A stretch of 50,270 nt of DNA from Globomyces pollinis-pini. Lineage: Eukaryota > Chytridiomycota > Chytridiomycetes > Rhizophydiales > Globomycetaceae. The stretch is taken from the NCBI GenBank assembly GCA_025399215.1, contig MU621216.1, forward strand, positions 1 to 50,270, in the 5' to 3' direction. Shown here in pieces: positions 20,295 through 48,206 of this stretch. The stretch's first letter is position 1, and every line of letters begins with the position of its first letter. The position numbers and the translations under genes are program-made. The notes beneath the pieces were generated by a model that had not been told where the DNA came from, did no database searches, and saw nothing but the letters and a program-made list of their open reading frames with translations.

Positions 20295-21278
20295 ATGAAT
20301 TTTTTATTCATTCTCAGTGTATTGAATCTGATTCTAGCATCAACTGGAGATCGACAACCAGCATATAAAGATTGTGTAAAGAGTTGTGTAAAGTCCTGTG
20401 ATCAGAAATCATTGTCGATAGTTCTTCGATTAACACAATGGACTTGCTCTGATGATTGCAAATATGTTTGTATGCATAAAATTACAGATTCAGCAATAGC
20501 AAATAATCAACAAATTCATCAATATCATGGTAAATGGTAACCACAGTGAATTAAAACAAAAGGCCATTTTATCGATTATGGGGAATCCAGGAACCGTTTG
20601 CAGTGTTATTTTCAATTGGAAATGGATATAATCACTATATGGGGGCTAAGAAGACTCTCTCACGACTTAGCACAAGATACCCTTTGATTCAATTATTGCA
20701 CCTGTACCGTATTGTGTCGATTAATACATGGTTATGGTCTGCTGTGTTTCATTCAAGAGATTTACCACTGACTGAAAAGGTTTATTAATGAGTTCGTATT
20801 GACACTTTAGATGGATTACTTTTCAGCAATGTTAGGCTTGCTAGTAGCCTTGTGTTATTGCCTTCATAGAGTATTTCGAATCCAGTATAATTCCACTGTT
20901 TCTGTCACATTGCAGTTCGCATTCATCACTTTCTTTTTGTTTCATATCTCCTATTTATCATTTTATCGGTTCGATTATGGTTATAATATGATAGCAGGAG
21001 TCACTGTTGGGCTATCACATAACTTAATTTGGGTTGGATGGAGTATTACATCAAAAAGAACTTATGCTTGGAAAATGGGAGTTGTTTCGTTACTTTTAAC
21101 TGGTACAGCACTTCTTGAAGTCTTTGATTTTCCAGCCTTCTTAAGGCTAATTGATGCGCATGCATTATGGCATGGTTCAACTATACCAATTGTAACTATG
21201 TATTGGGAATTTTTGTTAGAAGATGCTATGTATGAGGTATTTGTTTACGGTTTATTCATTCTAGGTTCGTCTTATTAA
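20295..21278 (+). CDS. PGAP3: PGAP3/PER1 GPI-remodelling enzyme
   Basis: Exons 20295..20536, 20563..20779, 20811..21278; introns 26 and 31 nt; 308 aa. A signal peptide (MNFLFILSVLNLILAST) is followed by the luminal Cys-rich segment (DCVKSCVKSC, TCSDDCKYVC, about 25-65). Then KWPFYRLWGIQEPFAVLFS, NTWLWSAVFHSRD, TEKMDYFSAM and the C-terminal DAHALWHGSTIP signature, with about seven hydrophobic segments. PER1/PGAP3 removes the unsaturated sn-2 acyl chain from GPI anchors in the ER or Golgi. Its substrates could include the GPI-type surface proteins predicted at 954 and 49256. Length is normal for the family. Confidence 0.92.
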
Positions 21279-21373: not shown

Positions 21374-22356
21374 ATGAAATTCACTTTTCTTGAAATAGCA
21401 ACATTTGCAGCCTCGACCGCATCCGTTGTATTTATTTTGGCATCAATAGTGGTTGAGCTAGTGAAGAATCGAGCTGCGCTTTGGGGACAACCACCCTCTC
21501 AGCTTCTATTTTTGGCCGAAATTATATTCGTCACCTTTCACATATCTGGAATCACGACATGTTATTTCTCTGCGATATCATTTGTATACAACGATTCATA
21601 CATCGAATGGTCAGAACGAGTATACATCTCAATGTTTGTATACAAAATGGCTTCTGTACTCATTACAAGTGTCCTATTCGGCGTATTTAGTTATGCATGG
21701 ACTAGTGTCAACGCTATTCTACCAAACAGAAAATTACCAAAAATAGTTGCAACGTATTCAAATTTGATTGCTCCTGTGATATACCTATACATTTTTTTAT
21801 TTATTGTAACAATAGTGATAGTGGGTATCAAGTTCTCAGCCGACCCACTAAGATTCTATTTTACGATGGGGTTAATGGTCGCAATCTTTCACTTCCTTAT
21901 TGGATTGTTGCTTGTCCCTATCATTATCGATTTAGCTGTAGTGTTAAAATATTACTTCAAGGTGCAACATGGGAAATCAGGGAAATTTCCGCGATTGGAT
22001 CAAAGTTCATTCTCTCTTATTCGATGTCTTACTGTAGCTATTCTGCTGCTTGGCATCTTGATGCTGTCTACTATGGCTAACTTAAAACACTCTGATATAT
22101 CATACATTTTCAGTCAAGCATCTTTACCAAAGTATAGTGAACCAAAAACAGAAATCTATACACAATTCAGCACAGTTATATTCAGTCTAAGTGGATTTTT
22201 CACTAGTTTCCTTACATTGGGAAAACTAATTGTTTGGGTAAATTAGAATGTTTTTTAATCGTACAGACTCCAGCGAATTATGATCTTGGTGGTTCGTTTT
22301 TGAAATCTAGAATTAGAAAGAAAAATACAATCACAAAAACCCAGGTTAATGGATAA
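21374..22356 (+). CDS. unnamed seven-helix membrane protein, family A member 1
   Basis: Exons 21374..22237 and 22267..22356 with a 29 nt intron; 317 aa. Seven hydrophobic segments are visible at about residues 5-27, 37-63, 70-95, 105-140, 147-185, 205-230 and 255-288. A short basic cytosolic-type tail (SFLKSRIRKKNTITKT) lies beyond the intron. Shares VKNR, YSNLIAPVIYL, LLLVPIIIDL and FLTLGKLIVW with members 2-4. No GPCR D/E-R-Y or NPxxY motif and no known family recognised. The 12th-residue region (LEIATFAASTASVVF) aligns with the N-termini of the other copies, so the start is secure. It is the most diverged in the TM6-TM7 loop (LPKYSEPKTE). Confidence 0.75.
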
Positions 22357-22717
22357 CCTACATTCATGGCATTAAATGAAGAAAAAACGGATTGTGCTAA
22401 AGTAAGCGAAAATTTTCTATATAAACATTGGTAATAACATTATTCCATTGAATTTCTATCACTCTATTGCACCATTAGCAATAAAATATATTGACACTAC
22501 ATTCCGGTCGAGCCTAGGTTCGTATGCTCGTATTCTCACGAGTAGTTGGATTTAATGAAACTTAGCCATCTAATCTTCATAAGTTGTTGCACATCGGCTA
22601 CTTTCTTGATGTCAACGGTCTTGTGTAAAGTGGCACGATGATCGATTTTACACAACACAGTCACGTGAGAGGGAACTTAAATACGTTTGTCATTTTAAAA
22701 TTTGCAACGAGTATTGT
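22357..22717. other. spacer between tandem family A genes
   Basis: About 360 bases, AT-rich. It includes an inverted-looking stretch TCGTATGCTCGTATTCTCACG near 22520. No ORF, tRNA or TATA box stood out. Confidence 0.4.
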
Positions 22718-23737
22718 ATGACTAAATTCACGCTGTTGGATAATGTTGCTTTTGTTGCCCACTCGTTGTCAATCGTTTTTGTATCAGGAGCCATTGTTTT
22801 GGAATCCGTCAAGAACAGAGTCGTACTTTTTAAATCAAGACCTGCTCAGCTGCTCTTCACATCCTATTGCTTCATGTTTATTTTTCATTTAACAGGCTTA
22901 CTAAATGGGTATATATCTGCAGTATCTATGGAACAGCAAGATTCTATGGTTCAATGGACAGAAAAAATGTTGGGTTCAGTCGTTATCTTTAAATCATCTG
23001 TAATTATCCTCAGCAGTATGCTACTCGGAGTCTTTAGTTACACGTGGACTACCGTAAATGCTTTACTGCCTGACAGAAAGCTTGCCAAATTTGTATCCTC
23101 ATATGCAACACTTATCGTTCCAATTATTTTCGTTTTCATTTCAATTTTCCTACTTGTCTTGATTGTGGTGGTAGCCGCATTTTCTCAACAGGCTATGCGA
23201 TGTTATTTTGCAGCATTCTTAACCGTTGGTGTGTTTCAAATATTGATTGGATTATTGCTCATTCCTATTATTATTGATGTAACCACAACTTTAGTTTTCT
23301 ATGTTAAATCCGCAGTAGCAAGAAATGGAGTATACTCGGATGCAGTAGATAACATATCATTCGCATTAACCCGATTGCTTGTGGTTGCTTACACTCTACT
23401 CGCCTTTATGATTCTCTCGGGGTATCTCAACTACAAAGATTCTGATATTTCTTTCATATTGTCGCCTCTTCCGTCGCCAAATAAGTATGATATTCGTAAA
23501 ACAGTTCCGTTTACCCAGGTTAGTACAATCCTCTTTGGATTCGGAGGATTCATTGCCAGTTTTCTTACTTTAGGTAAACTGGTTACAGTGGTAATATCCT
23601 GAATTGTTACTAAATCTATGTAGAAAGCAAGTGGCCCATCTACTGGATCCGATCATAAAACCAACAAATCAACTGTAACTGATTTGAAAAACGCTCAACA
23701 ATCTGGGACGGATATAAGGAATAGGGCAAAAATTTAG
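22718..23737 (+). CDS. unnamed seven-helix membrane protein, family A member 2
   Basis: Exons 22718..23590 and 23624..23737 with a 33 nt intron; 328 aa. Seven hydrophobic helices as in member 1. The loop between helices 6 and 7 carries SPLPSPNKYD, a motif repeated in members 3 and 4 (SPSPNRYD, SPFPSPNVYD). The helix 2-3 loop YISAVSMEQQDSMVQW is nearly identical to member 3. The intron falls immediately after the last helix (GKLVTV) and the second exon encodes a 37-residue polar Ser/Thr/Lys tail. Without splicing the protein would end three codons later, so the tail depends on the intron being removed. Function unknown. Confidence 0.75.
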
Positions 23738-23798
23738 AGTAGATATCAATATAACAATTGATGCGTCCTGACCAAAAATGTTGATAATAATTCATGCT

Positions 23799-26700
23799 TT
23801 ATAAAACTTTAAAATCACCTGATTGTCCTTGACACACAGGACATGACAATATTTTGGAATCAATTCGCTTATAAGTAGTCCCAATAATCGGATTCGCGGA
23901 CTGGGACACAGCTTTAGAAGAATAGATTGAAGATATAGAAGAGTCTGTGAAGCCAGAGACTTTACGATCATCAACTATCAAGAAATAAGTGATTAGAATT
24001 ACCTTGTTCAATGGGTTGCATTTCGATATGAGCTTGAAGGCATGTGGCATGAAAATAATGATGGCAAAAGAAGACTACAACATAATCTTACCAATAAGGA
24101 TTTTATATTGTTACCTGATGAGTTATTGATTAAATCATGACACACAGAGCATGCAGAATCATTCGATACTTTGACACCTTTACGCTGTGATTGAGTTAAC
24201 TGCGTTAGTGAATCCCAAGTATCACTATGTAATATTTTTTCACAACCCTCCCTTAAAGACATCTTTGATTTAATATTGATAAATTTTACCTGGACGCTAC
24301 AATCAGTCATTATTTGAATCAATGCAGCCTTGAGACCTGGTATAGCCAGACCAGAAGGGATTCTCTCAATAACTTTCAATGGGCTAATATGCGATCCCAA
24401 ATTTTCAAGTAGGCCAACAATAAACTCTATACATATTAACGACAGATGACTTGTACTAGGTTTATCCATCGAGAACTTTATAAATTCTTCCCATAATGTT
24501 TGGTCATTTTGCTCCTTCGCAAACTCAATAGCCATATTTACATCCCCAACTCTTTGAATAATCAACTTCAAAGATTCGCTATTTTTGCCCATTTTGCCTA
24601 GTAGATAAATCATTTCTGGCACTAGGTCACGGTCCAAACAAAGCTGGTAGGCCTAATAGTTAGCAGTCATTATACAATACTTCAGGATAAGAATAAGAAG
24701 AGCTGATTCTGAGAAAGTCAATTAACCTGGAAGGGTCATATTCTGCATATAACGACACTTGAAGTGAATGAAAAGCTGCACCTTCCAGAGGATCCTTTAA
24801 GAATAACGCGTCCAAATAAATGTGCAATAATTTCTCATCACTCTGGAGGGACTTGACAGCAATTGAAGGCGGAATATGATCGGTTTGGTGGACTAATAAC
24901 TGCGCTGCTTTAGAACCAACTGCAGATCTAATCCTCTGAGTAGGTAAACCAACTTCAGATTGCATGATTAAATGAGTTGGTTTAGGAGCGTCACCCGACG
25001 CTTCAATGGTTTTAAAATCATACTGCATCATCAGCAATGAGTTTTCGTACAAAAACCCATACAACTGGTTCTCTTCTATGATTTCAAGCTGCCTAGGAAG
25101 GGACAATAGCATTCCGTAGTAAACTGCGCGATCTAACTGTTTATCTTTAGTGAACCTAAAGTAAATAAATAGGTTATTACATTTCGACTAAAATATTGTA
25201 AAGTAAAGAGCTATCTTCTTGAGGCTGTATTAGAGATTGGATAGCTTTCGCAATCGGCTTTACTGCATATATTTCAACGGGCCAAACCTTGATGATTTCG
25301 TAAAATCCCTAATCTCAAAAAAAATCAAATCAATACTTTCAAATCCGAAGTCATGTAGTCTGTCAAAATTAATTCATACAAAGAATTTGGTAGTCTCGGG
25401 TTGTTGATTGGAATATATGGATATATTTTCTATTTTCAACTCTTAAAAATAATTTACCTTAAGTTCTCGAGCTTCTGCGAATTGGTAAATCCATTTTTCC
25501 CATAGTTTAACATCTTTTCCCAAAATTTTCGGACATAGTTCTGCAGCTGATTCGTATTTTTCTACTCGATAAGATCATGATCGTTACTGGTATCTAATAA
25601 AGATTTGATTTGTTTTTGTCCAATCTCAATAAGTAGTTCGTCTTTTCGACTTTCAGGAAATTGTAATCGATTGATTTCTACAGTTTCTAGTGCTTCCTTA
25701 AATCGTTTTTGCTGAACTAAAAAGTCTACATGGTCATTTATATCACGAGGCTTTGCAACAATAATATCTTTCGGTGACATAATGTAGTAAGTGTTTTCAG
25801 TTGTAGCATCTGATTCACAGAATTCTAATCAATTAGAAATTTTGCTCTTTCTACAATACCAAGTCTGTAATCGTTTGGCTGGTACATCTCCGCCCCGTTT
25901 ACTAGTATCTCATCATTAGCCAGTACTTCCCCATCTAAATCCACCACATATACTTCTGGTGACTTTCCAACACTTTTTTGGTTCATTGGTTTGTCCAAAA
26001 CATCAATATTATCAAATTCAGTCAAGTCCATATCATATCCTAACAGAATAATTGATTCATTAAATGGTGCCAATCCACAAACGACAAAACTCATCTTAAA
26101 TTGATGAACTACTTCAACATATTTCGGTGATAAGCCAGATGCAACATCAATTTGAGGTCTTTCCTACTAAATTAGACGTATCACTGTCCAAATTTGAATG
26201 TATTAAGTCAAAGTGAACCATTCCGAAGATAATAACACTTACTTTAATGGTAATCATTTTTACACTATCGCCCCAACCAATCAAAAAAGTTGAAGAATCT
26301 TTCCACGCAATGTTAGAACGAAATAAATCCCCTCTAGTTCCAGAATATCCTTTTTCCACATGACCAAACTTTGAAGATGTCATAACATCATAGATATTAG
26401 TTCCCTAACATGAATTCCAGATTTGGTTGTACTTTTTCATTTGACCAGACAATATATGTGTTGTTCCATGATACAGATGAAATTCTCCCTTCACCAGAGT
26501 GTAAAATAGTTTGATTATTCCCAAACCAACCTCGCAATTAAGGAATTGAACTCATACCCTTTCCACTTAATAACAGATTTTCTGCAGTTCCTCCAGATAC
26601 AAACTGTCTGGAGGTTTTTTTTCCAAAATCTGGCTCAAGTGCAACTGCACTGACTGGGCGTTTAAAGTTAAATGTACTTTGATCGGTTGAATACAAACTG

Positions 26701-27102
26701 TTAATGATAACTGAGAATTTAGCAGAAAGAAACAGTACCAGTTCCATCTCCGCCAGCACTTGCAATGTAATCACCCTAAACTATTAGAATATTATGGTAC
26801 TTGGTTGTCGATGCACAAATTGTTCACTGTACTTGTATGGCACTTCCAAGTCTTAACAGGAGTTCCAATGAGATCCATCAAATGAATAGTTCTAAAATTC
26901 AGAGCTAATTCTATCGATAAGCAACAATAGAATACATAAACAATGGTTGAATTACAAATGAAGTTTACCCCCAATGGGTTCCAATGGCCATAAAGCGATC
27001 AGACAACGACAAGCAGCTGATATTATCTTTATCCAGTAGTTCTGTCAATGATGCTGATAGTTTCGAGTATTTCAGTAGTGGTTCATCACTAGTGTCTGAC
27101 AT
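23799..27102 (-). CDS. VPS41: VPS41, HOPS tethering-complex subunit
   Basis: Sixteen exons, complement of 23799..23974, 24003..24074, 24115..24262, 24290..24652, 24681..25155, 25181..25308, 25337..25429, 25458..25564, 25588..25824, 25860..26163, 26243..26404, 26433..26530, 26558..26710, 26739..26775, 26801..26891, 26969..27102; 925 aa. Introns are 23-40 nt except two of 77 and 79 nt. N-terminal WD40-like part: MAIGTHWGTIHLMDLIGTPV, HTSTVNNLCIDNQGDYIASA, GWGDSVKMITIKERPQ. The linker motif IIVAKPRDINDHVDFLVQQK follows, then clathrin-heavy-chain-repeat helices (PRQLEIIEENQLY, LCLDRDLVPEMIYLLGKMG). The C-terminal RING-H2 has CSVC, CHHYFHATC and CPVC. VPS41 drives vacuole and lysosome fusion. The start at 27102 fits the family (EPLLKYSKL). 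Confidence 0.93.
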
Positions 27103-27377
27103 AAAAAGAGTAAATTTAATGCACCATCGCGTAACCATAGATCTTAGTTTAATGAATTCTTTATAAAAATATTATCGATCCTTGATCCATGGAGAAAGCT
27201 GTCACCCTTAATAAAAGGCCAAGTAAACGATTGAACTATAACAACAAGTATCACAACAGAACAATTCAGCATTTCATCAATTAGCCTAACAATATTCAAA
27301 GTGGATTTTTTGATCTGGCTATTTTATGTCGTTTTTGTTCGTGTCGAACTTTTTACTTTTCCTATTTTAGCTGGTGA
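27103..27377. promoter_or_regulatory. divergent spacer VPS41 / glycosyltransferase
   Basis: 275 bases between two outward start codons. AT-rich with no clear TATA box; presumably a shared promoter. Confidence 0.35.
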
Positions 27378-28417
27378 ATGATAGTGAAGAGTCAAGCAAC
27401 AGGCAATGCGAAAATCATATTTCTTTTTTTAGCTCATGATGGAATACAAAACCAAGATCTTTGGCAGGATTTCTTTTCAAAAACAAAGACTGGGAGAGGT
27501 ATTTAATTCACCATTTCTGTTACCATACTCTTAATACTTCTTAAAGTTATTCGGTACCAAATTTAATAATTTAATAGAATTTGGACTCATTTTATTTGTC
27601 AATCGAGAACATCATCGAAAGAGAGTGAACAACTTTTTCCGTCAATTTTTGATTAATTCACCGTTAAAGAAATGTGAATATGGGAATATTATCCCAGGAT
27701 ATTTGGTGCTAATGCAAGAAGGTGTGTAATAGCCTATTTAATATCAAAAGCAATTGCGCGTTATCCAAATCTGCAACAAGCCTATTGCATACCTGGTAAT
27801 TGTTTACCAATAAGACCTGGTATCGTTACATTTTAATACTAATACTTCAGTCAACTGGTATGCAAAAGAGTTAAATCAATGTGAAGTATGTTTTGATGGA
27901 CTACCAAAGTCCAAAAAGAAACTAGAAGATTACTGGAATAAACGAATATCAAAATCAGGTACGGAAGCATGTCATCATGAATTTAGCAGGATTGGTCACA
28001 TATTCGAACAATTACTCAATGGTTAGAGAGACAATTGACTTCATGATTAAGAACAAAACAGAGCTAACCAGATACCAACCTGTTCATGGTTACTATCCAG
28101 GTATCATTGTCTGATTAATTCATGAAGATGAATTTGCTATGTTCACACTGCTAAAGTACAAGGACTTTGAACTATTCACAAAATCTTTGAAACCAACGTT
28201 TGAGTTCATATGTTATGCTGAATATGTGGAAGAAGAAAATCCAACATTCGGTGATCGTGTATCTACCTGTAGAGCAATAGAATTTGGAACAGTAGAAGAG
28301 TTCCAGAGAGCTTTATCTTTAGCAATGGCTGGCGAAAGTACTGGCTTCATCAGAAAAATATCGGATGGTTTGAAAGTCGCTTATTCATCCGCTATTGGGC
28401 TGCACTTATTGAAATAG
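27378..28417 (+). CDS. core-2/I-branching (GT14)-like glycosyltransferase
   Basis: Six exons: 27378..27498, 27578..27721, 27751..27819, 27851..27958, 27987..28100, 28128..28417; introns 79, 29, 31, 28 and 27 nt; 281 aa. The opening KIIFLFLAHDGIQNQDLWQD matches the FLFLxRDGL...LWxxFF start of GT14/DUF266 enzymes. Also visible are IPGNCLPIRP (cf. SESCIPL) and HGYYPDEFAMFTLL (cf. PDEHYxxTLL). No signal anchor precedes the domain, unlike Golgi enzymes of this type, so it may be cytosolic or lack an upstream exon. The fold assignment rests on short motifs. The donor of intron 2 (GTGTGT) is unusual. Confidence 0.6.
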
Positions 28418-28541
28418 ATAATATTAATTGTACTTAACCACCTTTTGTATACAACCATGATTGAATTAAGACAGCAAGTATCTTTCGAACTTTTTTCGAT
28501 ATATTCGTATTAGTCTAGCCAAGCGATTCCGTCGAGACATA

Positions 28542-28762
28542 ATGATTGTTATAACGAGCAGTAATACTGCTCAATAAAAAATAGTATTATAGCTTTAATA
28601 CAAGGTGAAATATCCTCTAGAATTGCACAGGCCCAAACTCCTGTTCAAAGAACCAGAGAGAACACTACAGAAATTCCAGTTGAAGCAGAACATCAACCAG
28701 TTGAGGACGAACAAGAACCTCAAGTCGCAACAGATAACGAAGAACAAGAAGAACAAGAATAA
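28542..28762 (+). CDS. candidate 62-residue acidic protein
   Basis: Exons 28542..28560 (19 nt) and 28593..28762 with a 32 nt intron (GTAATA...ATAG). Splicing joins MIVITS to an open frame that lacks its own ATG. The product ends in a Glu/Gln-rich acidic tail (DNEEQEEQE). No domain. The support is only frame, splice signals and size match to other introns here. The opposite-strand ORF over it is a mirror of the acidic codons. Confidence 0.35.
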
Positions 28763-28952
28763 AAACTGAGGTTTTTTAAAAATTATAATAGTATGAGTGA
28801 TATACAATGGATTATCCCGTCACAATTATCAAAAAATGATACGAAACATTTAAGAAATAGCGTATCACTTTGAAATACCAGTGTATACTTCGAAAAAACA
28901 TTAGGACATTCAAAAGTACATGGTAAAAGGGTTTTATTGATTCATTTGTACT

Positions 28953-29896
28953 TCACTTGATATTTGTTTTGAGAGCAGTAACGGCAGCCTCTTTGGATTT
29001 CTAGTTAAAATTAGTGAACATTCGCTGCAAACCAAATCGATAAATTTCCCCAGTATCAGGAGGCTGGCAAAAGATCCCCCAAATCCAAAAAGCACATGGC
29101 TTATTTGTGTGAAAGGTGTTGTATTTCGTTGATCATATCGATTTGGGGAAGGGCTTGGTAAAATAATATATGATATGTCTGACTCTTTATAGTTTAGATA
29201 TCCCGACAACAACATGAAGCTAAATAGAATGATTGCAACTATAATGAATCGAAAGAGTGTGAAGGTCGCGTTATTAATCAAACTTCCCTTTTTGGAAACT
29301 GTAAGTTTGATAAATGAACATAAAGCGGTCGTCACATCATAAATGATGGGAATGAGCAATAACGCTATCAATGACTGAAATATAGCCGTTACTAGCAAAG
29401 CCATAAAATAAAATCGTAATGGTTGTTGAATCAACGTAATCGCTAAACCTACCAAAGCCAAGAAGAACATTGATATGAAAAAAAATATGACGGGGACGAT
29501 TAAATTGGAATATGTTGTTACCACTCGTGCTATTTTTCGATTCGGCAGCAATACATTAACAGAGGTCCAAGTGTAACTAAACGTACCCAGAAGGAAACTA
29601 GATCCAACAACAGCTGAAACCTTGTATATAATTATTGGGATCAATATTTTCTTTTTCCAGTCCAAGATAGAGTCTTGTTGTTCCATTGATATTGCTGATA
29701 TATAGCCATTTGCAATTCCAGTTATATGAAAAGGAATAAGAGACAGTAACGCTAAAAACAGTAATTGAGCGGGGCGTGCTTTCAGAGCTACATTTCTGTT
29801 TTGCAATAAATCTATTGATAATGCGACGCATAGAAATATCAATGAGAGAGAATGGGCGATAAAACTGGCATATTCTAAGGGTGTGAATTTTGACAT
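28953..29896 (-). CDS. unnamed seven-helix membrane protein, family A member 3
   Basis: Exons complement(join(28953..29000,29033..29896)), intron 32 nt, 303 aa. Begins MSKFTPLEYASFIAHSLSLIF, collinear with members 1, 2 and 4. Conserved landmarks are YISAISMEQQDS, FSYTWTSVNVLLPNRK, LLLIPIIYDVTTAL and SPSPNRYD, ending FGGSFASLLILGK. The first exon is 864 nt, the same as in member 1. Reading through the intron gives a longer tail (320 aa), but splicing gives IDLKSKEAAVTALKTNIK, which matches the polar tails of the paralogues. Inverted relative to members 1 and 2. Confidence 0.75.
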
Positions 29897-30146
29897 GCAA
29901 GCATTCCCGTAAGAAAATATTTCGCGTCAAAACCTTAACCCAATGACAGTGAAATTGCTTCTCATCCATCAACCTGATATGGATAAGAAACGACAAAAAT
30001 GAACAATAGTGTCGGTTACTATATGATAAGTAGCATAGTTGTCTGTCCCACTATTGCATTCAATACTAAACCCATCACAGACTTTTTCATTGCGCCACAA
30101 TAGATCGAGTACACAAGTAATTTACTAGGACTCAAGTTACTCTTTA

Positions 30147-30881
30147 ATGTTTGAAGTATTGTTAGACCATCCATCAGAAAACAGCGGTAATAGTTGCAAG
30201 GAAGTAAAACTTCTATCCACTGCAAAGGAGGATCAGTTTGAATCATCCAATCTTTGCTACGATAACTCGGAATTGTTAGATCTGCCACTGAATGTTACAA
30301 AGATCGCTACTGGTACGGACTTGAACTCTGATTCAGAAGTGGATGATGTGGAAGAAACAGAGATTGGAATGATCATCAGCAAAACATCGGTCAAGAATGA
30401 ACAAGCAGTTTCGTTCTTACAAATGAACGATATAGACTTAATCGTTGAAGATGATGATGAAATGCAGGAATTTCAATCTAGTCCTCCCATTCAAAATTTT
30501 GCCACATTTCCTGAAATCCAACCACAGACTAATTCACCAGTCTCTTCACCAGTTAGTAGTAGAAATGGGACTTCCACCACATTACATGAAAGTGATAGTG
30601 AAATGAAAACTGAAGTGCCTACCACAACTCCATTGATTTTACAAGATTTGACCGAAATCAGTAAAACTGCCTTGGTCGTGACAGATTCAATAGACTCGGA
30701 CAATGAGCGTGAAGATTCAATCGGATTTGTACCAGATTTACGAATTGAGTTGACCGGCTTTGAAGAATTAGATTATACAAGACAGTCCTATGAAAACGAC
30801 TCACATTATGGAGTACTGTCAAATTTAAACGTTTCAGGTTGGTGGTCTACATTAAAGTATATGTTTTGTTTAGGTAAATAA
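30147..30881 (+). CDS. acidic disordered hypothetical protein
   Basis: A 244-residue single-exon ORF, 250 bases from the divergently transcribed family A member 3. It is rich in Asp, Glu, Ser and Thr, with acidic clusters (SEVDDVEETEIG, IVEDDDEMQEF), a Pro/Ser linker and an aromatic C-terminus (SGWWSTLKYMFCLGK). The terminal segment is the only part likely to fold or bind membrane. Not recognised. Composition suggests a regulatory or adaptor protein. Confidence 0.6.
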   Translation: MFEVLLDHPSENSGNSCKEVKLLSTAKEDQFESSNLCYDNSELLDLPLNVTKIATGTDLNSDSEVDDVEETEIGMIISKTSVKNEQAVSFLQMNDIDLIVEDDDEMQEFQSSPPIQNFATFPEIQPQTNSPVSSPVSSRNGTSTTLHESDSEMKTEVPTTTPLILQDLTEISKTALVVTDSIDSDNEREDSIGFVPDLRIELTGFEELDYTRQSYENDSHYGVLSNLNVSGWWSTLKYMFCLGK

Positions 30882-31620
30882 AGTATGTTTTGTTTTTATT
30901 GCTTGTTCACTCATTTTGGTGAGTCTCAACTTGATATTGGTACTGAATTTGAATTTCGGGTAGTGATGATCGATAGGAATGATGCTGTTAATTCCGCTAA
31001 GCGCGTTTTGGTGGGTAGGGTAATGTATTGGGTCTTGTTTTCTTTGAATAAATGAAGGTGTCGTTTGATTCTATTGATTGTTAAACTCAGGTCCCGAATG
31101 AACTGGTATTGGGTTTACCGTGACTATATAGCCCAAAGTTCAGGCTGTTGAAAAAAGGGCGCCTTCAATCAAACACACGAGTTTTTCTTTTCAATGCTGT
31201 AGAATACTTGCATTACGAGCATCAATCAATAAGTGTTTTGAAATAAGAAGAAGATATGAGTGTATGCATTTCCATTTATGTCCAAATCGAGAATCACAAA
31301 ATCATTTCACCCTGAACTCCCCACAAGGCTCAAAAAGGACAGAGTACTAACATGGAATTATTTTTGGAAATCATATGCAGTCTCTTTAACTCAAATCCCG
31401 TATCTCTGCCAACTTATAATTACCAATCAGATTCTCGCATTGATTCAGACACAAAAACCTTATACTTTATAGTAAGTTGGACACGATTGCCAAACAATTT
31501 GATATCATGGGGTTCGGCCAATGTTTCCAATCTGAAATCCATATTGGCCACAATACCTGGCATAAATCTCGCATCCAGGCTTGATTTGAAGGCTCTTGTA
31601 GCGGCGACCAGAGAACTTTG
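30882..31620. other. intergenic, no gene supported
   Basis: About 740 bases upstream of the LPMO-like gene. ORFs of 70 and 132 codons exist (31260-31472 and 31352-31750), but the second overlaps the LPMO-like start and neither has domain features. Most likely promoter region. Confidence 0.45.
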
Positions 31621-31628
31621 TATAAATA
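31621..31628 (+). promoter_or_regulatory. TATA box of the LPMO-like gene
   Basis: TATAAATA 44 bases before the ATG at 31665, the same spacing as in the lipase promoters. Confidence 0.6.
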
Positions 31629-31664
31629 TACTTTCATCACGCTACAGTATCAAACAAATCAAAA

Positions 31665-32507
31665 ATGTACTTTTACAATTATATACTCTTATCAACTATT
31701 GCTACTACCGTAACTGCTCACGGGTTCTTGAGTGCTCCATCAGGTCTTAATGGACAAAAAGCTACCAAGGTGAACGTTGCTGGTGAACCTTGTGGGAAAG
31801 TGCAGGGAACTTTTCCACCTAATGCTGCTGATCTAGCCGCAACTACCGTTACATTAAAGCCTGGTGATAAAACTGCTAAAATTCAATACATTATTCAAAA
31901 TGGTGATGGGGCTGGTCCCGTAAACATCCAATTTGATCCTTCCGGTACTGGTGACTTTTCCACTATTCAAAACGCTACAATTTCTCAGCAAGTTCCTGGG
32001 GTTAAGGGGATCTTGAAGGGAGCTCGAAGAGACGCAGCTGATGTGATCTTTGAAGTTCCTGCTAATCTCAACTGTCCCAATGGTTGTTTGATGCGTATTT
32101 CTCAAGCTGATCGTCAATTTGGGGCCTGTGCCATTATCAAAACTGGAGCTGAAACTGCCATCCCTGCTCCAGAACCGGTCAAAGGTGCCAAGAAACAAGG
32201 TCAAGTAGGAAAGGCTGCCAAAAAGGGCAAACAAGCTAAAGGAAATGCCAAAAAAGGAAAGGGAAACCAAGGCCGAGCGAAAGGCAAGGGAAAGGGAAAG
32301 GGAAAAGGCAAAGGAAAGAAGGCAAAGAAAGCAAAGAAGGGAAAGAAGGGTAAAAATGGAAAGAAGGCTAAGAATGGAAAGAAAGGGGAAGCCAAAGTCA
32401 ACAAAAGAAATCAGTTAGTCAAGCGCAGCATTGCTCGTCGAGAAGAAGACATTGATGCCGAAGATTTGGCCGCGGATATTGAAGATGGTTTGGTGAATCT
32501 TGTTTAA
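31665..32507 (+). CDS. secreted Egh16/LPMO-like protein with lysine-rich tail
   Basis: A 280-residue intronless ORF. The signal peptide MYFYNYILLSTIATTVTA is followed directly by HGFLSAPSG, so cleavage would expose an N-terminal histidine as in copper-binding LPMO and Egh16/MAS-type fungal proteins. The domain (about residues 19-165) has three or four cysteines (GEPCGK, LNCPNGCLMR, FGACAIIK) and a beta-sandwich-like strand pattern ending QFGACAIIKTG. Residues about 172-247 are an extreme Lys/Gly/Ala repeat. Dibasic sites (KRNQLVKR, IARR) and an acidic end (EEDIDAEDLAADIEDG) follow. Egh16-like proteins are linked to host penetration in pathogenic fungi. Whether this one is catalytic is unknown, and a second histidine of a copper brace is not evident. 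Confidence 0.7.
   Translation: MYFYNYILLSTIATTVTAHGFLSAPSGLNGQKATKVNVAGEPCGKVQGTFPPNAADLAATTVTLKPGDKTAKIQYIIQNGDGAGPVNIQFDPSGTGDFSTIQNATISQQVPGVKGILKGARRDAADVIFEVPANLNCPNGCLMRISQADRQFGACAIIKTGAETAIPAPEPVKGAKKQGQVGKAAKKGKQAKGNAKKGKGNQGRAKGKGKGKGKGKGKKAKKAKKGKKGKNGKKAKNGKKGEAKVNKRNQLVKRSIARREEDIDAEDLAADIEDGLVNLV
32190..32400 (+). repeat. Lys/Gly-codon simple repeat in the LPMO-like gene
   Basis: Purine-rich AAG/GGA/AAA codon runs encode KGKGKGKGKGKK-type sequence over about 70 residues. Expansion or contraction by slippage is likely. Confidence 0.85.
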
Positions 32508-32974
32508 TGTTACTTTGTAAACACACAGATACAATTGTTTCCAATAAATTCAATATGTAAATGTAATTTTCTTTGTATTCCAAATTTTTGAAACTGATAA
32601 GTGTGTAAGATTCTTAATTTTTAGTCATATAGTTAACTCCAATCAGCACATCTCTCTTATCTTTGAATCAATGCGGACCGTAATATAATATCATAGACTG
32701 ACAGAAGTATAGAGCAATATTTTATCCTAATACCACAAACTACAGAGTTCTGTGACTGAACACAAAGAAGCAAAAAAAAAACAAGAGAAAATTGAAACAA
32801 CAAACAACAATACGACAAGGAATATAAAAACCGAACCGAACCAAGCTAAGCATTAACGAGCAGTAAATAAGCGCGGTGCTGAGCAGCAATCACCCAGGAC
32901 CCGACTATACACGCTAGAAAGTCACTCCACCCGCCCGTGTCAAGCCTCTTTCACTTTCCAATTAACTTACTCGG
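32508..32974. other. intergenic, no gene seen
   Basis: About 470 bases including an A/C-rich stretch (near 32760-32860) just before the DUF1769 gene. No ORF or RNA gene supported. Confidence 0.4.
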
Positions 32975-33994
32975 ATGCATTTGCATTCTAATAATACACA
33001 CAAACTACAGGTCAAGGTCGGAACTGACTTGCATAATTTACAGCTGATTAACCCAAATGACGAAGCGAACCCCTTCCTAATTGATTCAGTGCATTTTAAA
33101 GGTGAGTTTATCTACTGCTTTTTTGTTATTACAGACCTCTTGACATCCAGAATCTTATCTCTTTGGTCAATTGTCTAATTAATGTAGGGTTTGTAATGGT
33201 TCGTATCAAGGATTTCAATGGAATTGTTCCGAAAGGATGCGAGTTAAAATCATGTAATACATATTTCCACAACAAGAAGCATGTTTACTCGTTGGTAATC
33301 CAGGGTTCTTTTACCGATACTTACACTGTGGATGATATATTGGTCGCCAGTATGTTTTAATTCTTAATTGTAGGTGAATTTGTAACAACATCGCAAGCAT
33401 ATCTAACCTTAGGAACGTCCTATCAATGTTCCTCATTTTATCGTTAAATTTTGGAATATGGTTGCACCACACTCCATGACAGACTTGGCTGGAATTAAAC
33501 CTTTTGTTCGTTCTTTCGCTCTGTCGGCCTCCAGCATTATAAATATTTCAGCATCAAAGCTATTAGAGTTTTCCAAGCATATACAGGAAGATATCAATGC
33601 TATATTACCAACAAACTTACAGATAAAGAAAAACAGACATTCATTTTGGGAAACCGAGGAAGTAATCTAATATTATATATTGATGGTTAGGGACATTTAG
33701 TTGCAGCGAGGAGGAAACTATTCGTATTGGAAGAGAATCGTAAACAGGCTGTTATAAAACCGGACAGCACCATTTGTAATTCACTTTAATATTGATACCA
33801 AATTAGGTTTAGAAACATTCAATAGCTTTTTTGATCCAAATACTTTCAAAGTTCGAATACCTTTAGGACTGGATATAGATTTACATCATATTTTGGATTA
33901 CCAACCATTACGCTTCCATTTGAAAACAAAGGATGATAGCAAGCACTTTGCTCTGGTGGAATTAAGTCTAGTGCCTGAGGTCTCTACTGACTGA
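32975..33994 (+). CDS. DUF1769 (UPF0590) family protein
   Basis: Six exons: 32975..33101, 33188..33349, 33374..33381, 33413..33661, 33691..33775, 33807..33994; introns 86, 24, 31, 29 and 31 nt; 272 aa. The family pattern is visible: LQVKVGTDLHNLQLINPND, IDSVHFKGFVMVRIKDFNG, YFHNKKHVYSLVIQGSF, TVDDILVAS, ERPINVPHFIVKFW, ARRKLFVLEENRKQ and ICLETFNSFFDPNTFKVRIP. Exon 3 is only 8 nt; both flanking splices are needed to keep frame. The family is widespread in fungi and has no known biochemical function. No signal peptide or membrane segment. Confidence 0.82.
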
Positions 33995-34145
33995 TGGATT
34001 TTAGATATATCATCGTGCATTTAATCTCATTAATATAAATTGTTCGTATAATTCTTTTTGTTTCTCATCGTCAATGTCCTTCGGTGTTTTGTCATTGGTA
34101 TCGAATTGGTTTTTGTCCGACCAATAGATTTGTTCTCCCTTGAAA

Positions 34146-36036
34146 ATGGAAATTGAAAGGCTAAAAGAATTACTAAAAATCAAAGGGTTTAATGCTGAGG
34201 ATTCTCTGGACTGGACTATGGCAATGGAAGAGGAAGGCAAATTCGTTCGACATTTGGCTGATGCAATATATAATCTACAACCTATATCTGAACTCTCAGT
34301 ACAACTGTAACCTACTCTATACTCTTATATTTGATCAGTTTAAAGGAACTTGATGGAGAAGGTTTTGATTGGACTAAGTGTACGACCCCAAATGAGGGTG
34401 AACAAATATTAGATGATTGGGATGAAGAGAAGTGCATAAAGGAGATAGAACAAATGGAAGGAATGTTAAAATTGCAGATACATAGAGAGGAAATGATCAG
34501 GTAAATTTAACTATTGAATCGCCAACATTACTGCATTAGAGTGGAATTACAAGATTTGGATACCCAAGAATGCCATATTGCAAAATCTATCAATATAAAA
34601 AAGCAACTTCAAAAAGATTTAGATTTCGATATCCAGTCACTGTACAACATGGTAAAAGATATATTTAACATTTATGTTAGTTATATAAAGAAACGTCAGA
34701 TTCGTTAAACATTGGTGAAATAATCAATAAGCTACATTGCATTGAAGAAACAGATCCAGAATTTTTTACATCATGTATTGTGAATTGCCTAACTGGATGT
34801 TTCTAGTCTCCTTTATTTTTCAAAATCGAACCTTGACAGATCAATTTGTAAATATTCACTCTGGATATGTTGATGAATTGAAAAATTTATTGAATCGTTT
34901 TGATGTATGCTTTACTTGACTTACTTTTAGACCACACTGTCAAAGACACAATTTAACTTACCATGTGAAACAATTGATGAAATAGATAGACTTCGAGACG
35001 CGTAAGCGATATTTTGAATTGATTATAGCTACTCGGGTTTAGAATACAAAGCGCTAGAGTTAGACATACAATGTCATTATTACGAATTGCTTACAAAAGC
35101 GTTAGAGGAACAGCAAAAGCATATCCTTCAAGGTGATAAAGTGGATTCCGATCCAACTATACCAATCGAATTGAATCACGATTTGTTCGTTGATTCTTTC
35201 AATCCTTTTCTTCGTGAATGCAAACCATTACTGGATGATTTAGTTCTGCACAAGATCACATCACCAATTTACTCAGAAATATACCAATATCAAATCAATA
35301 GCCAATCGCAGTTGCTTCAGTGCATAAACGAAGTTAACATCAATTTTTCTTAAACTTACAGATCATTGATATATCTCTAGATTTTGTAACGACACTTCAA
35401 TATCGCTCCATATGTGCTACCAAAGATACTGAACTTATTTCAAGCCAAATAGACTCAATACATCCTCTATTGGTTGAGTTGGATAAACATTCAAACTATT
35501 GGAAAGGGCTATCGGTATTCTAAGATCATTAATTGTAGAATATTATGGCTAAATATCCCAAAACATCTGATGCAACCCAATATATGGACGGCACTAATTT
35601 ACTCATTCAAGAATTGGAAGCACTTTTTGAAGGTTTTTGCACCGGCATTAACTAGCAGGACAATTTCAATATGGAATGTATCATTCTGACCCATTTCTGA
35701 ATAGGGTTAAACAATTTAAAGAACATGGCGTGGAATTAGATAACACTCAGAAAACTCTGATAAAATCGTTGTATCTATCTACCAATAACATGTATGTATT
35801 AATTGAAAATGGTTATTCTAGGAACCAAAACGTACAGAAACTATTAGATACCATACATACATTCTCAGTCAGCAGACATCATCTTAGTGCACCCAAACCG
35901 ATATTAGACTCCGTGTCTGATATTGAATCTCAAATAACTGATTTACATCCTCGTGTCAAGTACCTTTCTGCAATGGGTAATTGATATTTGATTAATGATT
36001 AAAGTAAATGAGTTAGTAAACCAATCGGATGACTGA
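34146..36036 (+). CDS. HAUS3: HAUS3-like augmin complex subunit
   Basis: Eleven exons: 34146..34306, 34339..34500, 34540..34651, 34681..34774, 34807..34904, 34931..35001, 35029..35332, 35362..35514, 35539..35632, 35656..35976, 36005..36036; introns 23-39 nt; 533 aa (525 if the last intron is retained, ending at 35984). The N-terminus (LLKIKGFNAEDSLDWTMA, FVRHLADAIYNLQPISELS) follows the HAUS3 pattern of a GxxxxDSLxW start, a FLxWF-like segment and a second GFDW element. The rest is alpha-helical with long coiled-coil segments, and the length is near the usual 550-600. Augmin recruits gamma-tubulin to spindle microtubules for branching. Assignment rests on N-terminal motif and architecture. 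Confidence 0.55.
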
Positions 36037-36175
36037 TTTAATAAATAAAATTCAACGAAATATGATTAATTTACACTAAACAGACGCTAAATAGTTGGAT
36101 ATATAGAGATGATGATAACTAAAAGATTCACATGATAGGTTTAAAAAGGAAAAGAATTCATTGAGAAAATTGTAA

Positions 36176-37163
36176 CTACTGTACAATCGCTGATTGCGCG
36201 ACGGATGCAGTGTTTTTTGAAGAAACTTTCTTGGACAAGACACGTTTCTAATCGTTAATGTAACATTATCATTACTGGCAAGATATACTTTCCAAGGAAA
36301 AGGACACTTGTGATCATTCCTGCAAGTCCAAACGCAATATTCGGAACTTCACTGTGTCGATTCATCAATTTCACGTCATATACGTTTGGAGAAGGAAAGG
36401 GCGATTTAAGGTAAGCCATGTCTACCTGTCTAGCATTATTGAAACCACCCCAAGCCAAATAAGCCATCATCATCACTTCAACACCAATACAACGTACCAA
36501 TCCAAACGATACTTTATCAAAGAACCCAGTATCTTCAGAATTACTTACAGATGATCGTACAGTCTGGTACAAAAAAAATGCTCGGATCAAGTCGAGAAAA
36601 GATGGAATAAGAAGAAAAGTAAAGAGAAACTGAAAACATGACATGATAATGAACCTAGCAAAAAAGAAACGCAAAGGTTCGGTTGCAAGTAAAAAACCTA
36701 CAATAACATACCCTGACACTACAAGCAAAATTGTAGCTAATATAGAAGTAAGAAGTACTTGACACTCTGGAGATATCCCTTGACTGTTCTAGCCAAAGAT
36801 TTTCCCTGACCTAACAGTGATTCAAAACTGATCCAATAGTTTAAGAACATACAAAAGTAACCAAAAGTAGTTGCTAAAGATCCAATCATATATAATGTCA
36901 TTGGTATGGCCAATTTAACTTTTCCAACTGCAAAAGAAATCACCATTGTCTACCGATACAGCTGCAACATAAGTACACCATATGTGGGAGAAATGAAATA
37001 TAATTAAAGAAACACACGCAATGACTCCAATTTTGAAACTTTCAGTTTTCTTTGTCTCCATTTTACAGTAAATGAAATCCACAACAATAGCAACTGTTAA
37101 GAATATGATTGAAACTGAATGTGTTGCAATCTGAATATAGTCAATTCCAACCAATGCACCCAT
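36176..37163 (-). CDS. unnamed seven-helix membrane protein, family A member 4
   Basis: Exons complement(join(36176..36247,36276..36736,36766..36918,36944..37163)); introns 28, 29 and 25 nt; 301 aa. It has two introns more than the other members, plus the same C-terminal intron after the last helix (GKYILP). Starts MGALVGIDYIQIATHSVSIIF. Conserved elements are YVAAVSVDN, FLLIPSFLDLIRAF, SPFPSPNVYD and GLAGMITSVLFLGK, with a basic Lys/Ser tail (KRVLSKKVSSKNTAS). The first intron could be 25 or 16 nt, a difference of three residues; I chose 25 because it fits the local size range. The most diverged member in sequence. Confidence 0.7.
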
Positions 37164-42175: not shown

Positions 42176-43132
42176 TTACTTTTCATCCTGATCTTGTGGT
42201 TTTTGGTCGGTCACATTATTGGTAACAGCTGGTAAACCTAATTGCGAACCACTTTGCATTTGATCGCTGATAATATTCTTTAAGAATATGCCGTATGATA
42301 GATTGCATTTGACTCTCATCACCAGAGTGGTAGCTGTAACAGCACTATCGAACAAAATAGAGATTCCTGATGCAATAATAACTTTCAACGCGACGTCAAA
42401 CAAAAGTAATAACCAAATAATGATATACTCGAATAGCATTAGCTTTGCTGTTGCAGACTTTTTCATTTTGGTTTTTGTTGACTTTTCCAGATTTAATTCA
42501 TGAAAGATTTTTGCCAATAACTTAAAATCAGTAACCACTGCCAGAGCTTCGGTAACCAGTATAAATCCAATATTGATGGGTTTGAAATAAAGTGCATTGT
42601 AACTTGATCTATTTAAGAATAAATTTTTGGGAACTGCTTCAATGATACAAAAGTACACTGGAATCAATGTGAAAAACGGAATCAGATAAAGTGCCATAGA
42701 ATATCTACTTAAGAATTTGAAAATTTTCGATTTTGGGTAAGCAAAATATAATCTTTCGATAGTGTTGTGATTAATAATCACCAACCCATACTGATTTGCA
42801 ACAAAAATGATAACTGTCGTAAGATTACTTACTTGTGCCGGTTGGCCAATAGAGTTGATTGGATATGCAAAAATTGCAGCTATAGATAGTACGAAAAGTA
42901 AGAGATTGAGTATAGTTTGACGACTAGAATCTTTCTTCAAACTGAAAACCAATCCATGGGTTACAAGATTTTGTGAAGTAATAGCAAAGTTGATTCCGGA
43001 AAATGTACAACCTCCAGCGAGGGTCAGTGCCGGTAATGCTGAAATGGACATTAAGAAATGAGAAAACACGTAATAGTTTGTCACACGGTATTGATGAGAA
43101 AACGATCGAACTTTGTTCAATATCGAAAACAT
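42176..43132 (-). CDS. unnamed polytopic membrane protein, family B member 1
   Basis: Single exon, 318 aa from the ATG at 43132 (the frame is open to 43162). About seven hydrophobic segments. Motifs shared with the gene at 46840: THGLVFSL, RQTILNLLLF, QYGLVIINHN, LYLIPFFTLIPVY, FKPINIGFILVTE, then ASGISILFDSAVTATTL near the C-terminus, and a polar tail. Charged insert (KSTKTKMKKSATAK) between helices 5 and 6. No sequence relation to family A that I can see, and no known transporter or GPCR signature. Confidence 0.72.
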   Translation of the reverse strand: MFSILNKVRSFSHQYRVTNYYVFSHFLMSISALPALTLAGGCTFSGINFAITSQNLVTHGLVFSLKKDSSRQTILNLLLFVLSIAAIFAYPINSIGQPAQVSNLTTVIIFVANQYGLVIINHNTIERLYFAYPKSKIFKFLSRYSMALYLIPFFTLIPVYFCIIEAVPKNLFLNRSSYNALYFKPINIGFILVTEALAVVTDFKLLAKIFHELNLEKSTKTKMKKSATAKLMLFEYIIIWLLLLFDVALKVIIASGISILFDSAVTATTLVMRVKCNLSYGIFLKNIISDQMQSGSQLGLPAVTNNVTDQKPQDQDEK

Positions 43133-43396
43133 GAAGTCAGTTAGATTTTCTTGAATTTTCAAAAGTGTCGGTTTTTTGTAGGAAAATAAAAGAGTATAGC
43201 CAGTGCCTTAGTTTCTGTGATTCGCTGATAAATAATGTAAATGTATCTAATACGAGTTTCCTGGCATATTTGATGGTCTGAATATTGATAATTCCCAAAT
43301 AGTCTTTCTAGAATTTTTCATATGCTCTACCTCGAAACTGTAACTGGTCTTAATTTATCCACATGACGTTAATTTTCCATTTAAACTACAACGATT

Positions 43397-46839: not shown

Positions 46840-47760
46840 TTAAACCTGAACTGAACCAGATTGAATTGGATCAATGGTATTCCAGTTATGAGCCATGTCA
46901 GTAACTCCTGAGGGATCTTTAGAGGCATCAGGATTGGAACATTGAAGGTGTGACAAAAGTACTTGCCCATACTGCAAATTGAACTTGGACCGTAAAGCAA
47001 GTGTAGTAATAGTAACAGCACTATCAAATAATAAGGGAATTCCATTAGCAATCAGTATTTTGATGAAAATGTCCAATAGCAACACGATCCAAATCACAAT
47101 ATAATCTAACCAAATATTTCCTGATTTGTATATTGCCAAGGATGACTTAAAATCGATCAACTGGTTAGAGGTTGAATTAGAAGTTTCTTCATCAATTGGT
47201 TGAGATTGATTCACACACGTCAACAAATACAAGTCAATAAAAGACGCCAACAATTCCGTTGCTATCACCAAAAAGATATTTAAAGGTTTAAAATAAAACC
47301 TGTTAAATTTTGATTTGTTTAAAGGTAGACCTTTGGGTATAGTTTCAATGGCAGCCAAGTAAATTGGTATCAATGTGATAATTGGTATCAGGTATAAGAT
47401 TGGCCAAAATGCATACAATTTTCTGAATGTACTGAGGTGAGATTGAGCTGCTCCCAATCTTGCAAACGAGTTATGATTGATGATAACCAGTCCATATTGA
47501 ACGATAGTGAATACAATCAATGTGAAGATATTTGAAACCACGTTATTGACTGCTAAATAATTCAATAGATAGGAAAATATAGAGCATGTGGAAGCAAACA
47601 ACAGAATCAATGATAAGAGTGTTTGTCGATGTTTGTCATTCACAAGACTAATATGAAGTCCATGAGTGCGCAGTATACAAGAATTGATAAATACATTTAG
47701 ACAACTGAAAGCAACTCCTGATATTGCAGTAATCAAATAAACTGTGCCTGTATTGTCCAT
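46840..47760 (-). CDS. unnamed polytopic membrane protein, family B member 2
   Basis: 306 aa from the ATG at 47760; no earlier in-frame ATG, though the frame stays open about 95 bases further. A 23 nt intron (GTGACG...ATGAG) joining the ATG at 47840 to this frame is possible and would add about 20 residues. Shared with member 1: THGLHISL, RQTLLSLILLF, IVQYGLVIINHN, LYLIPIITLIPIY, YFKPLNIFLVIATE, ANGIPLLFDSAVTITTLAL. About seven hydrophobic segments. The helix 5-6 loop (EETSNSTSNQ) and C-terminal tail differ from member 1. Function unknown. Confidence 0.7.
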   Translation of the reverse strand: MDNTGTVYLITAISGVAFSCLNVFINSCILRTHGLHISLVNDKHRQTLLSLILLFASTCSIFSYLLNYLAVNNVVSNIFTLIVFTIVQYGLVIINHNSFARLGAAQSHLSTFRKLYAFWPILYLIPIITLIPIYLAAIETIPKGLPLNKSKFNRFYFKPLNIFLVIATELLASFIDLYLLTCVNQSQPIDEETSNSTSNQLIDFKSSLAIYKSGNIWLDYIVIWIVLLLDIFIKILIANGIPLLFDSAVTITTLALRSKFNLQYGQVLLSHLQCSNPDASKDPSGVTDMAHNWNTIDPIQSGSVQV

Positions 47761-48206
47761 TGAGCAATTTGAGTTGATAAATGTTGCTATATATAGAACT
47801 AAAGGTCCCGTCTCATAGGCTTCATCAACGTCACCCACATGTATGATTAATGTTTATAATTGTGTTTGGTAATGAACAGCAACCTAATCTTCCTCTAATT
47901 AATTATTTGCCATTCAAATACATTGAACTGGTACTTGCACTGTTTTTCCAGTGTTTATCGTAAAGATATTATAGCATCAAGTTGTTTAGTTTCAAATGGA
48001 AGGCAGACCGAGCCTTCACACGCTTTTTGGTTGTGGGTTCAGAAACCTATAGGTGGGTATATCCACTAAATTGAGTATCAACAAACCTTGGTTATGTGAA
48101 ATTAAGTTTAGAATTGTTAAGTTATTGACTGAAACTCTATTGAAATCCACTATTTTACCGCATTTCATTTGAACTTAGAGGAAAAAGTTTGTAATCAAAA
48201 CTAACA
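47761..48206. other. divergent spacer, no gene seen
   Basis: About 445 bases between family B member 2 and the phosphodiesterase gene, both reading outward. AT-rich, no clear TATA box or ORF. Confidence 0.4.

What the first reader, a model, noticed from the sequence alone, without database searches (positions are those of the whole stretch)
21374..37163. Family A: four paralogous seven-helix membrane proteins of unknown function
Genes at 21374, 22718, 28953(-) and 36176(-) share length (301-328 aa), seven helices, collinear N-termini, a LLLIPIIID-type helix 5, a helix 6-7 loop motif SPxPSPNxYD (in three of four) and one intron exactly between the last helix and a short polar tail. Four copies in 16 kb, tandem and dispersed, imply an expanding lineage-specific receptor- or transporter-like family. 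I recognise no known GPCR or transporter motif.
Basis: partly seen in the sequence, partly recalled or inferred. Interest (0 to 1): 0.75.

Follow-up and report, generated by a model that had tools for sequence, protein, structure and literature searches.

The report
Orphan seven-helix receptor-like family in chytrid
A chytrid fungus carries a family of related seven-helix membrane proteins that match no described family found here and look most like cell-surface sensors, in a genome that also holds an unusually large and oddly built set of G-protein alpha subunits.

Summary
The family is real and larger than reported. The window is contig C127 of Globomyces pollinis-pini (Chytridiomycota); that genome holds at least 25 homologous loci on 16 contigs. 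Seven averaged hydropathy peaks, an N-out charge bias (23 of 23 sequences) and a short candidate intron just after the last helix (same codon in 17 of 20 loci) are family-wide. Three window genes are open; the fourth (36258-37163, -) is broken by two frame changes. Window copies are old duplicates (dS above 3), so "expanding" fits other clusters better. No convincing Pfam, NCBIfam or PDB match; protein hits only in Globomyces. The same PDB search with class C GPCRs of this genome finds mGluR4 at 4e-22, so the silence is informative. Family A shows a weak in-register TM1-TM2 similarity to them (24%; 0 of 200 shuffles reach it), absent for the window-type subgroup alone.

Best reading: a lineage-specific receptor family of GPCR topology. 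Context: further orphan multi-helix families and 41 G-alpha loci, of which 38 of 40 readable have Leu or Ile for the catalytic Gln.

The parts
21374..22246 (+). Family A gene 1, main exon (7 helices); candidate tail-intron donor GTAAAT lies in the last codons of the ORF
22718..23590 (+). Family A gene 2, main exon (open frame runs to 23602); the same gene in Globomyces sp. JEL0801 is P0001, 325 aa with tail
23591..23623 (+). Candidate tail intron of gene 2 at the family's conserved position (33 nt; P0001's model starts it 9 nt earlier)
   Evidence: no RNA
23624..23737 (+). Polar tail exon of gene 2 (KASGPSTG...NRAKI, stop)
28934..29896 (-). Family A gene 3; public model P0002 (303 aa) uses the tail intron
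36258..37163 (-). Family A gene 4, broken: profile 5-79, 75-136 and 135-291 lie in alternating frames
42179..43162 (-). Family B orphan multi-helix gene (separate family; context only)
46843..47838 (-). Family B orphan multi-helix gene (separate family; context only)

Best explanation
Family A is a lineage-specific family of seven-helix plasma-membrane receptors of GPCR topology: N-terminus outside, positively charged inner loops, and a basic Ser/Thr-rich cytoplasmic tail encoded on its own small exon. Most likely each paralogue senses a different external cue (nutrient, pollen compound, pheromone) and signals through heterotrimeric G proteins. Shown: homology, seven hydrophobic segments, charge bias, shared tail-intron position, purifying selection in close pairs, no convincing match to a described family, co-occurrence with a large G-alpha set. 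Inferred: surface location, ligand sensing, G-protein coupling.
For: Seven peaks in the aligned family. K+R fraction in predicted inner loops 0.159 against 0.091 outer, same direction in 23 of 23 sequences. Inner helix halves more conserved than outer (mean BLOSUM 1.58 vs 0.89, p 0.0015, 23 sequences). Tails of 10 public models average 27% Ser/Thr and 21% Lys/Arg. dN/dS 0.19-0.35 in 10 close pairs. Weak in-register TM1-TM2 similarity to class C GPCRs of the same genome: hhalign 24%, score 32.9, reached by 0 of 100 shuffles of each side. The genome has 41 G-alpha loci, 9 class C loci over cut-off and 9 RGS matches.
Against: No significant sequence match to any GPCR class, although class C domains of the same genome do match. 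The class C similarity is absent with the four-sequence window-type profile (0.1%) and the global probability is 1%. No consistent outer-side excess of dN/dS. Side-specific conservation is weak when loops are included (p 0.043) and absent in the window-type subgroup (p 0.96 with loops, 0.38 helices only). Nine of 24 members did not give exactly seven peaks alone. Most G-alpha loci lack the catalytic Gln, so canonical coupling is not assured.
Confidence: 0.55

Rival explanations
1. Family A is a small transporter, channel or lipid-handling membrane protein family that happens to have seven helices; paralogues differ in substrate.
For: No GPCR-class match. In the seven-sequence C303/C116-type subgroup, Arg164, Trp168, Gln173, Gln177 and Pro186 around helix 5 are invariant and could line a substrate path. 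No consistent outer-side excess of dN/dS.
Against: No convincing match to a transporter family in Pfam, NCBIfam or PDB. The inner-half conservation and Ser/Thr-rich basic tail are more usual for receptors (general knowledge). Internal repeats were not tested.
Confidence: 0.22
2. Seven-helix receptors that do not use G proteins, for example ligand-gated channels of the insect gustatory-receptor type.
For: Tandem and dispersed multi-copy pattern as in chemoreceptor families.
Against: That superfamily has the N-terminus inside and longer chains (recalled); here charge bias predicts N outside in 23 of 23 sequences and chains are about 300 aa.
Confidence: 0.1
3. Surface proteins for mating, self-recognition or cell adhesion rather than sensing of environmental chemicals.
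For: Lineage restriction at search sensitivity and, in one JEL0801 protein, a mosaic pattern suggesting exchange between paralogues.
Against: No extracellular domain: helix 1 begins within about 13 residues of the start.
Confidence: 0.1

Closest known systems
Class C (glutamate-type, 7tm_3) GPCR seven-helix domains of the same genome
   Same: Seven averaged hydropathy peaks; weak in-register similarity over TM1-TM2 that shuffles do not reach
   Different: No Pfam 7tm_3 match, no PDB match, no large extracellular part; similarity not significant alone
The 17 fungal GPCR classes of Liu, Salamov and Grigoriev 2025 (PMC12842992; abstract, sections 2.5.2, 3.1, 3.2, 3.5 and passages seen)
   Same: The paper leaves 141,666 seven-helix fungal proteins in 1969 clusters not identified as GPCRs (section 3.5); family A could be among them
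   Different: Family A matches no Pfam GPCR model; 'Globomyces' does not occur in the main text. Its 67 query sequences and supplements were not tested
DUF6534 putative GPCRs of Agaricomycotina (same paper)
   Same: Orphan seven-helix family proposed as receptors
   Different: No DUF6534 match in 24 members; the paper's consensus predictions are all in Agaricomycotina
Insect gustatory-receptor-like proteins (recalled, not tested by sequence)
   Same: Seven-helix, multi-copy chemoreceptors
   Different: Opposite predicted membrane orientation and shorter chain

Membership tests
GPCR (any class) | Seven helices, N-terminus outside, C-terminus inside | tested here: met
   Family average; charge bias. 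Prediction only; 9 of 24 single sequences did not give exactly seven peaks
GPCR (any class) | Sequence match to a described GPCR family | tested here: not met
   positive control
GPCR (any class) | Couples to a heterotrimeric G protein | not testable with these tools
   G-alpha loci present but no assay or complex prediction possible
GPCR (any class) | GPCR fold by structure | not testable with these tools
   first job failed
Class C GPCR (7tm_3) | Match to Pfam 7tm_3 | tested here: not met
   no family A locus among 14 matches
Class C GPCR (7tm_3) | Profile similarity over the seven-helix domain | tested here: inconclusive
   24% local, 1% global; 0 of 100 and 0 of 100 shuffles; 16% for A3; 0.1% for the window-type subgroup
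cAMP-receptor-like (Dicty_CAR) | Match to Pfam PF05462 | tested here: not met
   3 matches, on C1 and C99, none at a family A locus
Families B and C of the same genome | Profile similarity to family A | tested here: not met
   hhalign 0.16% and 0.25%; controls between family A subgroups 98.1-99.5%. Family D was not compared
Insect gustatory-receptor-like | N-terminus inside (recalled) | tested here: not met
   charge bias; prediction only
DUF6534 seven-helix proteins | Pfam DUF6534 match | tested here: not met

The most novel reading that the evidence does not exclude
Globomyces has evolved a large private sensory system: several unrelated orphan multi-helix receptor families (A, B, C and perhaps D) served by about 38 G-alpha subunits whose catalytic Gln is Leu or Ile. 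Such alphas should be slow or unable to hydrolyse GTP, so signalling would be ended by something other than intrinsic or RGS-aided GTPase activity, or receptors would act on permanently GTP-loaded alphas. Family A would be a new GPCR class and this a non-canonical G-protein cycle.
Probability: 0.25. Interest if true: 0.87.

Novelty: new variant of a known kind. Interest (0 to 1): 0.6.

Why it matters
A chytrid with at least 25 members of one orphan seven-helix family, further orphan families and 41 G-alpha loci suggests that zoosporic fungi hold a large undescribed sensory repertoire. Earlier work already noted that Chytridiomycota have a broader, more animal-like GPCR set than other fungi (PMC3251606, abstract and passages seen), but by known families. 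For G-alpha, a 2019 paper reports twelve genes in Mucor circinelloides and says its group had reported the largest number of G-protein genes in fungi there (PMC6936849, passages seen). If the Leu-for-Gln alphas are functional, they offer a natural test of how a G-protein cycle runs without the usual off-switch.

Tried and rejected
PDB profile hits of A4 (erbB-2 fragment E 0.054; MesI/Lpg2505 E 1.1 and 1.2) and of A3 (one, E 1.5) are chance-level. Scattered weak Pfam hits (14 families; DUF969 E 0.0016 in 1 of 24, PEN-2 0.015 in 1, COX8 0.11 in 2) rejected. Rhodopsin-type reading: the conserved Lys of LGKY sits at the inner end of helix 7 and is replaced in 4 of 24 rows, unlike a retinal Lys in mid-helix (recalled). 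Introns as the cause of gene 4's breaks: disfavoured, since the family profile runs through all three pieces without a gap. Viral homologues: two scans of viral contigs matched patterns but found no relative. dN/dS split by membrane side showed no consistent difference. A link between families A, B and C was tested and not found.

Sampling limits: protein searches scored only the 7997 candidates sharing most words (5103 candidates); absence outside Globomyces is therefore weak evidence, and I did not verify that close Rhizophydiales proteomes are in the database. A4 holds 20 of the 25 own-genome loci (C122 as P0003) plus P0001 and P0010-P0012; left out were gene 4 (broken), C116:51136, C3 and C266 (partial) and C221 (found later, in two exons). 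In one search P0001 was dropped as a near copy of gene 2. For one search I took from the 81 rows those covering profile 210-235; one further such row (C230:7819) belongs to the C230 gene already counted.

Full report
What the window is. The window equals contig C127 of an 18.5-Mb, 459-contig genome. Globomyces pollinis-pini proteins P0002 and P0003 lie on contigs of 50270 and 51228 bases, the lengths of C127 and C122, so the organism is that chytrid. Neighbouring genes include a Per1-like gene at 20811 and an Egh16-like gene at 31665.

The observation. Genes at 21374, 22718 and 28953(-) are open and homologous. The gene at 36258-37163(-) matches the family over its whole length, but in three pieces in alternating frames (profile 5-79, 75-136, 135-291), with three stops when read through by the search tool. 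Nothing is missing between the pieces, so it is a pseudogene or carries assembly errors. Helix 5 motifs read LLLVPIIID, LLLIPIIID, LLLIPIIYD and FLLIPSFLD.

Size of the family. Repeated six-frame searches gave at least 25 loci on 16 contigs (tally): four in the window, four on C303, three on C116, two on C17 and single ones elsewhere, some partial at contig ends. One further G. pollinis-pini protein, P0010, lies on an 8912-base contig that did not appear among the matches in G000. Subgroups are bound by full-length profile matches: 99.5% (E 3.9e-22), 99.1% and 98.1%. A tree puts window genes 1-3 with C122 in one clade (support 1.00) and the C303/C116/C32 genes in another (1.00); one deep node has 0.18 and one node inside the window clade 0.13.

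Age and selection. Ten close pairs have dN/dS 0.19-0.35, so the genes are maintained. g2-g3 and g1-g3 have dS 3.3 and 3.4 and g2-C122 2.4: old, saturated duplicates. C303 pairs have dS 0.40-0.54, 116b-C3 0.26, 116a-116b 1.02.

Topology. The aligned family has seven hydrophobic peaks. With an outside N-terminus, inner loops are richer in Lys and Arg (0.159 vs 0.091) in 23 of 23 sequences. Inner helix halves are more conserved over all 23 (p 0.0015; with loops p 0.043), in the 12-sequence C303/C116-type set (p 0.012; with loops 0.76) and in six divergent members (p 0.010; with loops 0.0018), but not in the four window-type sequences (p 0.38; with loops 0.96). Columns are not independent, so these p values are rough. 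Helix positions come from my hydropathy peaks, not from a dedicated topology program.

The tail intron. A GT at exactly 27 nt after the anchor occurs in 17 of 20 loci scanned, one codon away in 2 (C1, C150), none in C14. The two C17 genes were not in that scan; their frames read on through the tail. Candidate introns are about 24-34 nt. Tails of 10 public models average 27% Ser/Thr, 21% Lys/Arg and 7% acidic. The shared position in members only about 20% identical argues for a single origin.

What it is not. The four window pieces scanned alone gave one Pfam hit far below its cut-off (11.2 against 30 bits). Among 24 members the best Pfam hit was E 0.0016 in one member, the best NCBIfam 0.032. 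PDB searches found nothing useful. Protein searches found only Globomyces (3, 4 and 10 proteins). As a positive control, eight class C seven-helix domains of the same genome (A10) hit metabotropic glutamate receptor 4 at 4e-22. So the method sees a remote GPCR of a described class when one is there.

A weak thread to GPCRs. Family A against those class C domains gives 24% over TM1-TM2, aligned TM1 to TM1; the C303/C116-type subgroup A3 gives 16%, the window-type subgroup 0.1%. Global alignment runs collinearly 5-291 to 1-247 but at 1%. Shuffling columns within 8-column blocks of either profile reached the score in 0 of 100 and 0 of 100 trials, best 24.7 and 20.4 against 32.9. Families B and C against class C give 0.4% and 0.5%. 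This is a hint, not membership.

Setting. The genome has further orphan multi-helix families; the members scanned have no Pfam match over cut-off. Family B, seeded by window 46843-47838(-), has 27 matches and six averaged peaks. Family C, seeded beside the C122 gene, has 50 matches at E up to 0.01, the weakest near 0.003, and seven peaks. Family D, seeded beside the C284 gene, has 34 exon-level matches on 13 contigs; its seed alone shows five peaks. A, B and C are unrelated by profile (0.16-0.35%); D was not compared.

G-alpha. The Pfam G-alpha model gave 81 matches, of which 41 non-overlapping ones cover profile positions 210-235, on 14 contigs. Of these 41 loci, 40 had a readable switch II: 36 DVSGL, 1 DVNGL, 1 DVSGI and only 2 DVGGQ (C230 and C327; a narrower first scan read 33); C49:58196 could not be read. 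One of the 38, C58:31876, meets a stop soon after in that frame. A switch I Arg-x-x-Thr was found upstream in 39 of 40 (for C114 the scripted hit is a second match and the printed stretch also holds RIVTQNIS). P-loop motifs were found at 35 places in the first 20 stretches fetched. Pfam confirms G-alpha for three exons and a PDB search for one. In textbook G-alphas this Gln is catalytic and Gln-to-Leu is constitutively active (recalled). The search finds exons, so conventional G-alphas with many short exons may be missed.

Mechanism. The most likely reading is a family of GPCR-topology receptors for external cues. The co-occurring G-alphas make coupling plausible, but their altered switch II means the cycle may not be the textbook one. 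Co-occurrence is correlation only.

Literature. PMC12842992 (abstract, sections 2.5.2, 3.1, 3.2, 3.5 and passages seen) defines 17 fungal classes and leaves 141,666 unclassified seven-helix proteins; its main text does not name Globomyces. PMC3251606 (abstract and passages) mined 79 fungal genomes for known GPCR families and noted the broad chytrid set. PMC6936849 (passages) gives twelve G-alpha genes in Mucor. PMC12716839 (passages) includes Batrachochytrium dendrobatidis in its taxon list. PMC13391722 (one passage) mentions the Globomyces genome. I saw no description of this family or of the G-alpha set in the listings (titles and abstract starts) of searches; most subscription journals and all supplements were out of reach.

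Noticed in passing
Own genome G000, 14 contigs (C21 x9, C49 x7, C280 x5, C366 x4, C58 x4, C161 x3, C197 x2, seven single): 41 G-alpha loci; 38 of 40 readable have DV[SN]G[LI] where the catalytic DVGGQ is expected, 2 are canonical. Many lie close together on one contig.
   Followed up: partly
window 42179-43162(-) and 46843-47838(-): Second orphan multi-helix family (B) with 27 matches in the genome and no Pfam match over cut-off in the members scanned.
   Followed up: partly
L017:1540-2373(+), beside the family A gene on C122: Third orphan family (C), 50 matches; longer members have an N-terminal part of about 200 alignment columns before seven hydrophobic peaks.
   Followed up: partly
L019:1977-2924(+), head-to-head with the family A gene on C284: Fourth orphan family (D), 34 exon-level matches on 13 contigs. 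The matched A and D frames end 41 bases apart in opposite directions; D's first ATG lies about 75 bases further in.
   Followed up: partly
P0010 and P0011: The JEL0801 protein P0011 is 97-100% identical to P0010 over its first 120 residues and 65-85% after that, while its tail equals that of P0008 apart from three residues near its start: possible gene conversion between paralogues.
   Followed up: partly
window 31665-32507(+): Egh16-like protein with a long Lys/Gly-rich C-terminal part.
   Followed up: no
Own genome G000: Nine class C (7tm_3) loci over cut-off and nine RGS matches, few compared with 41 G-alpha loci.
   Followed up: no
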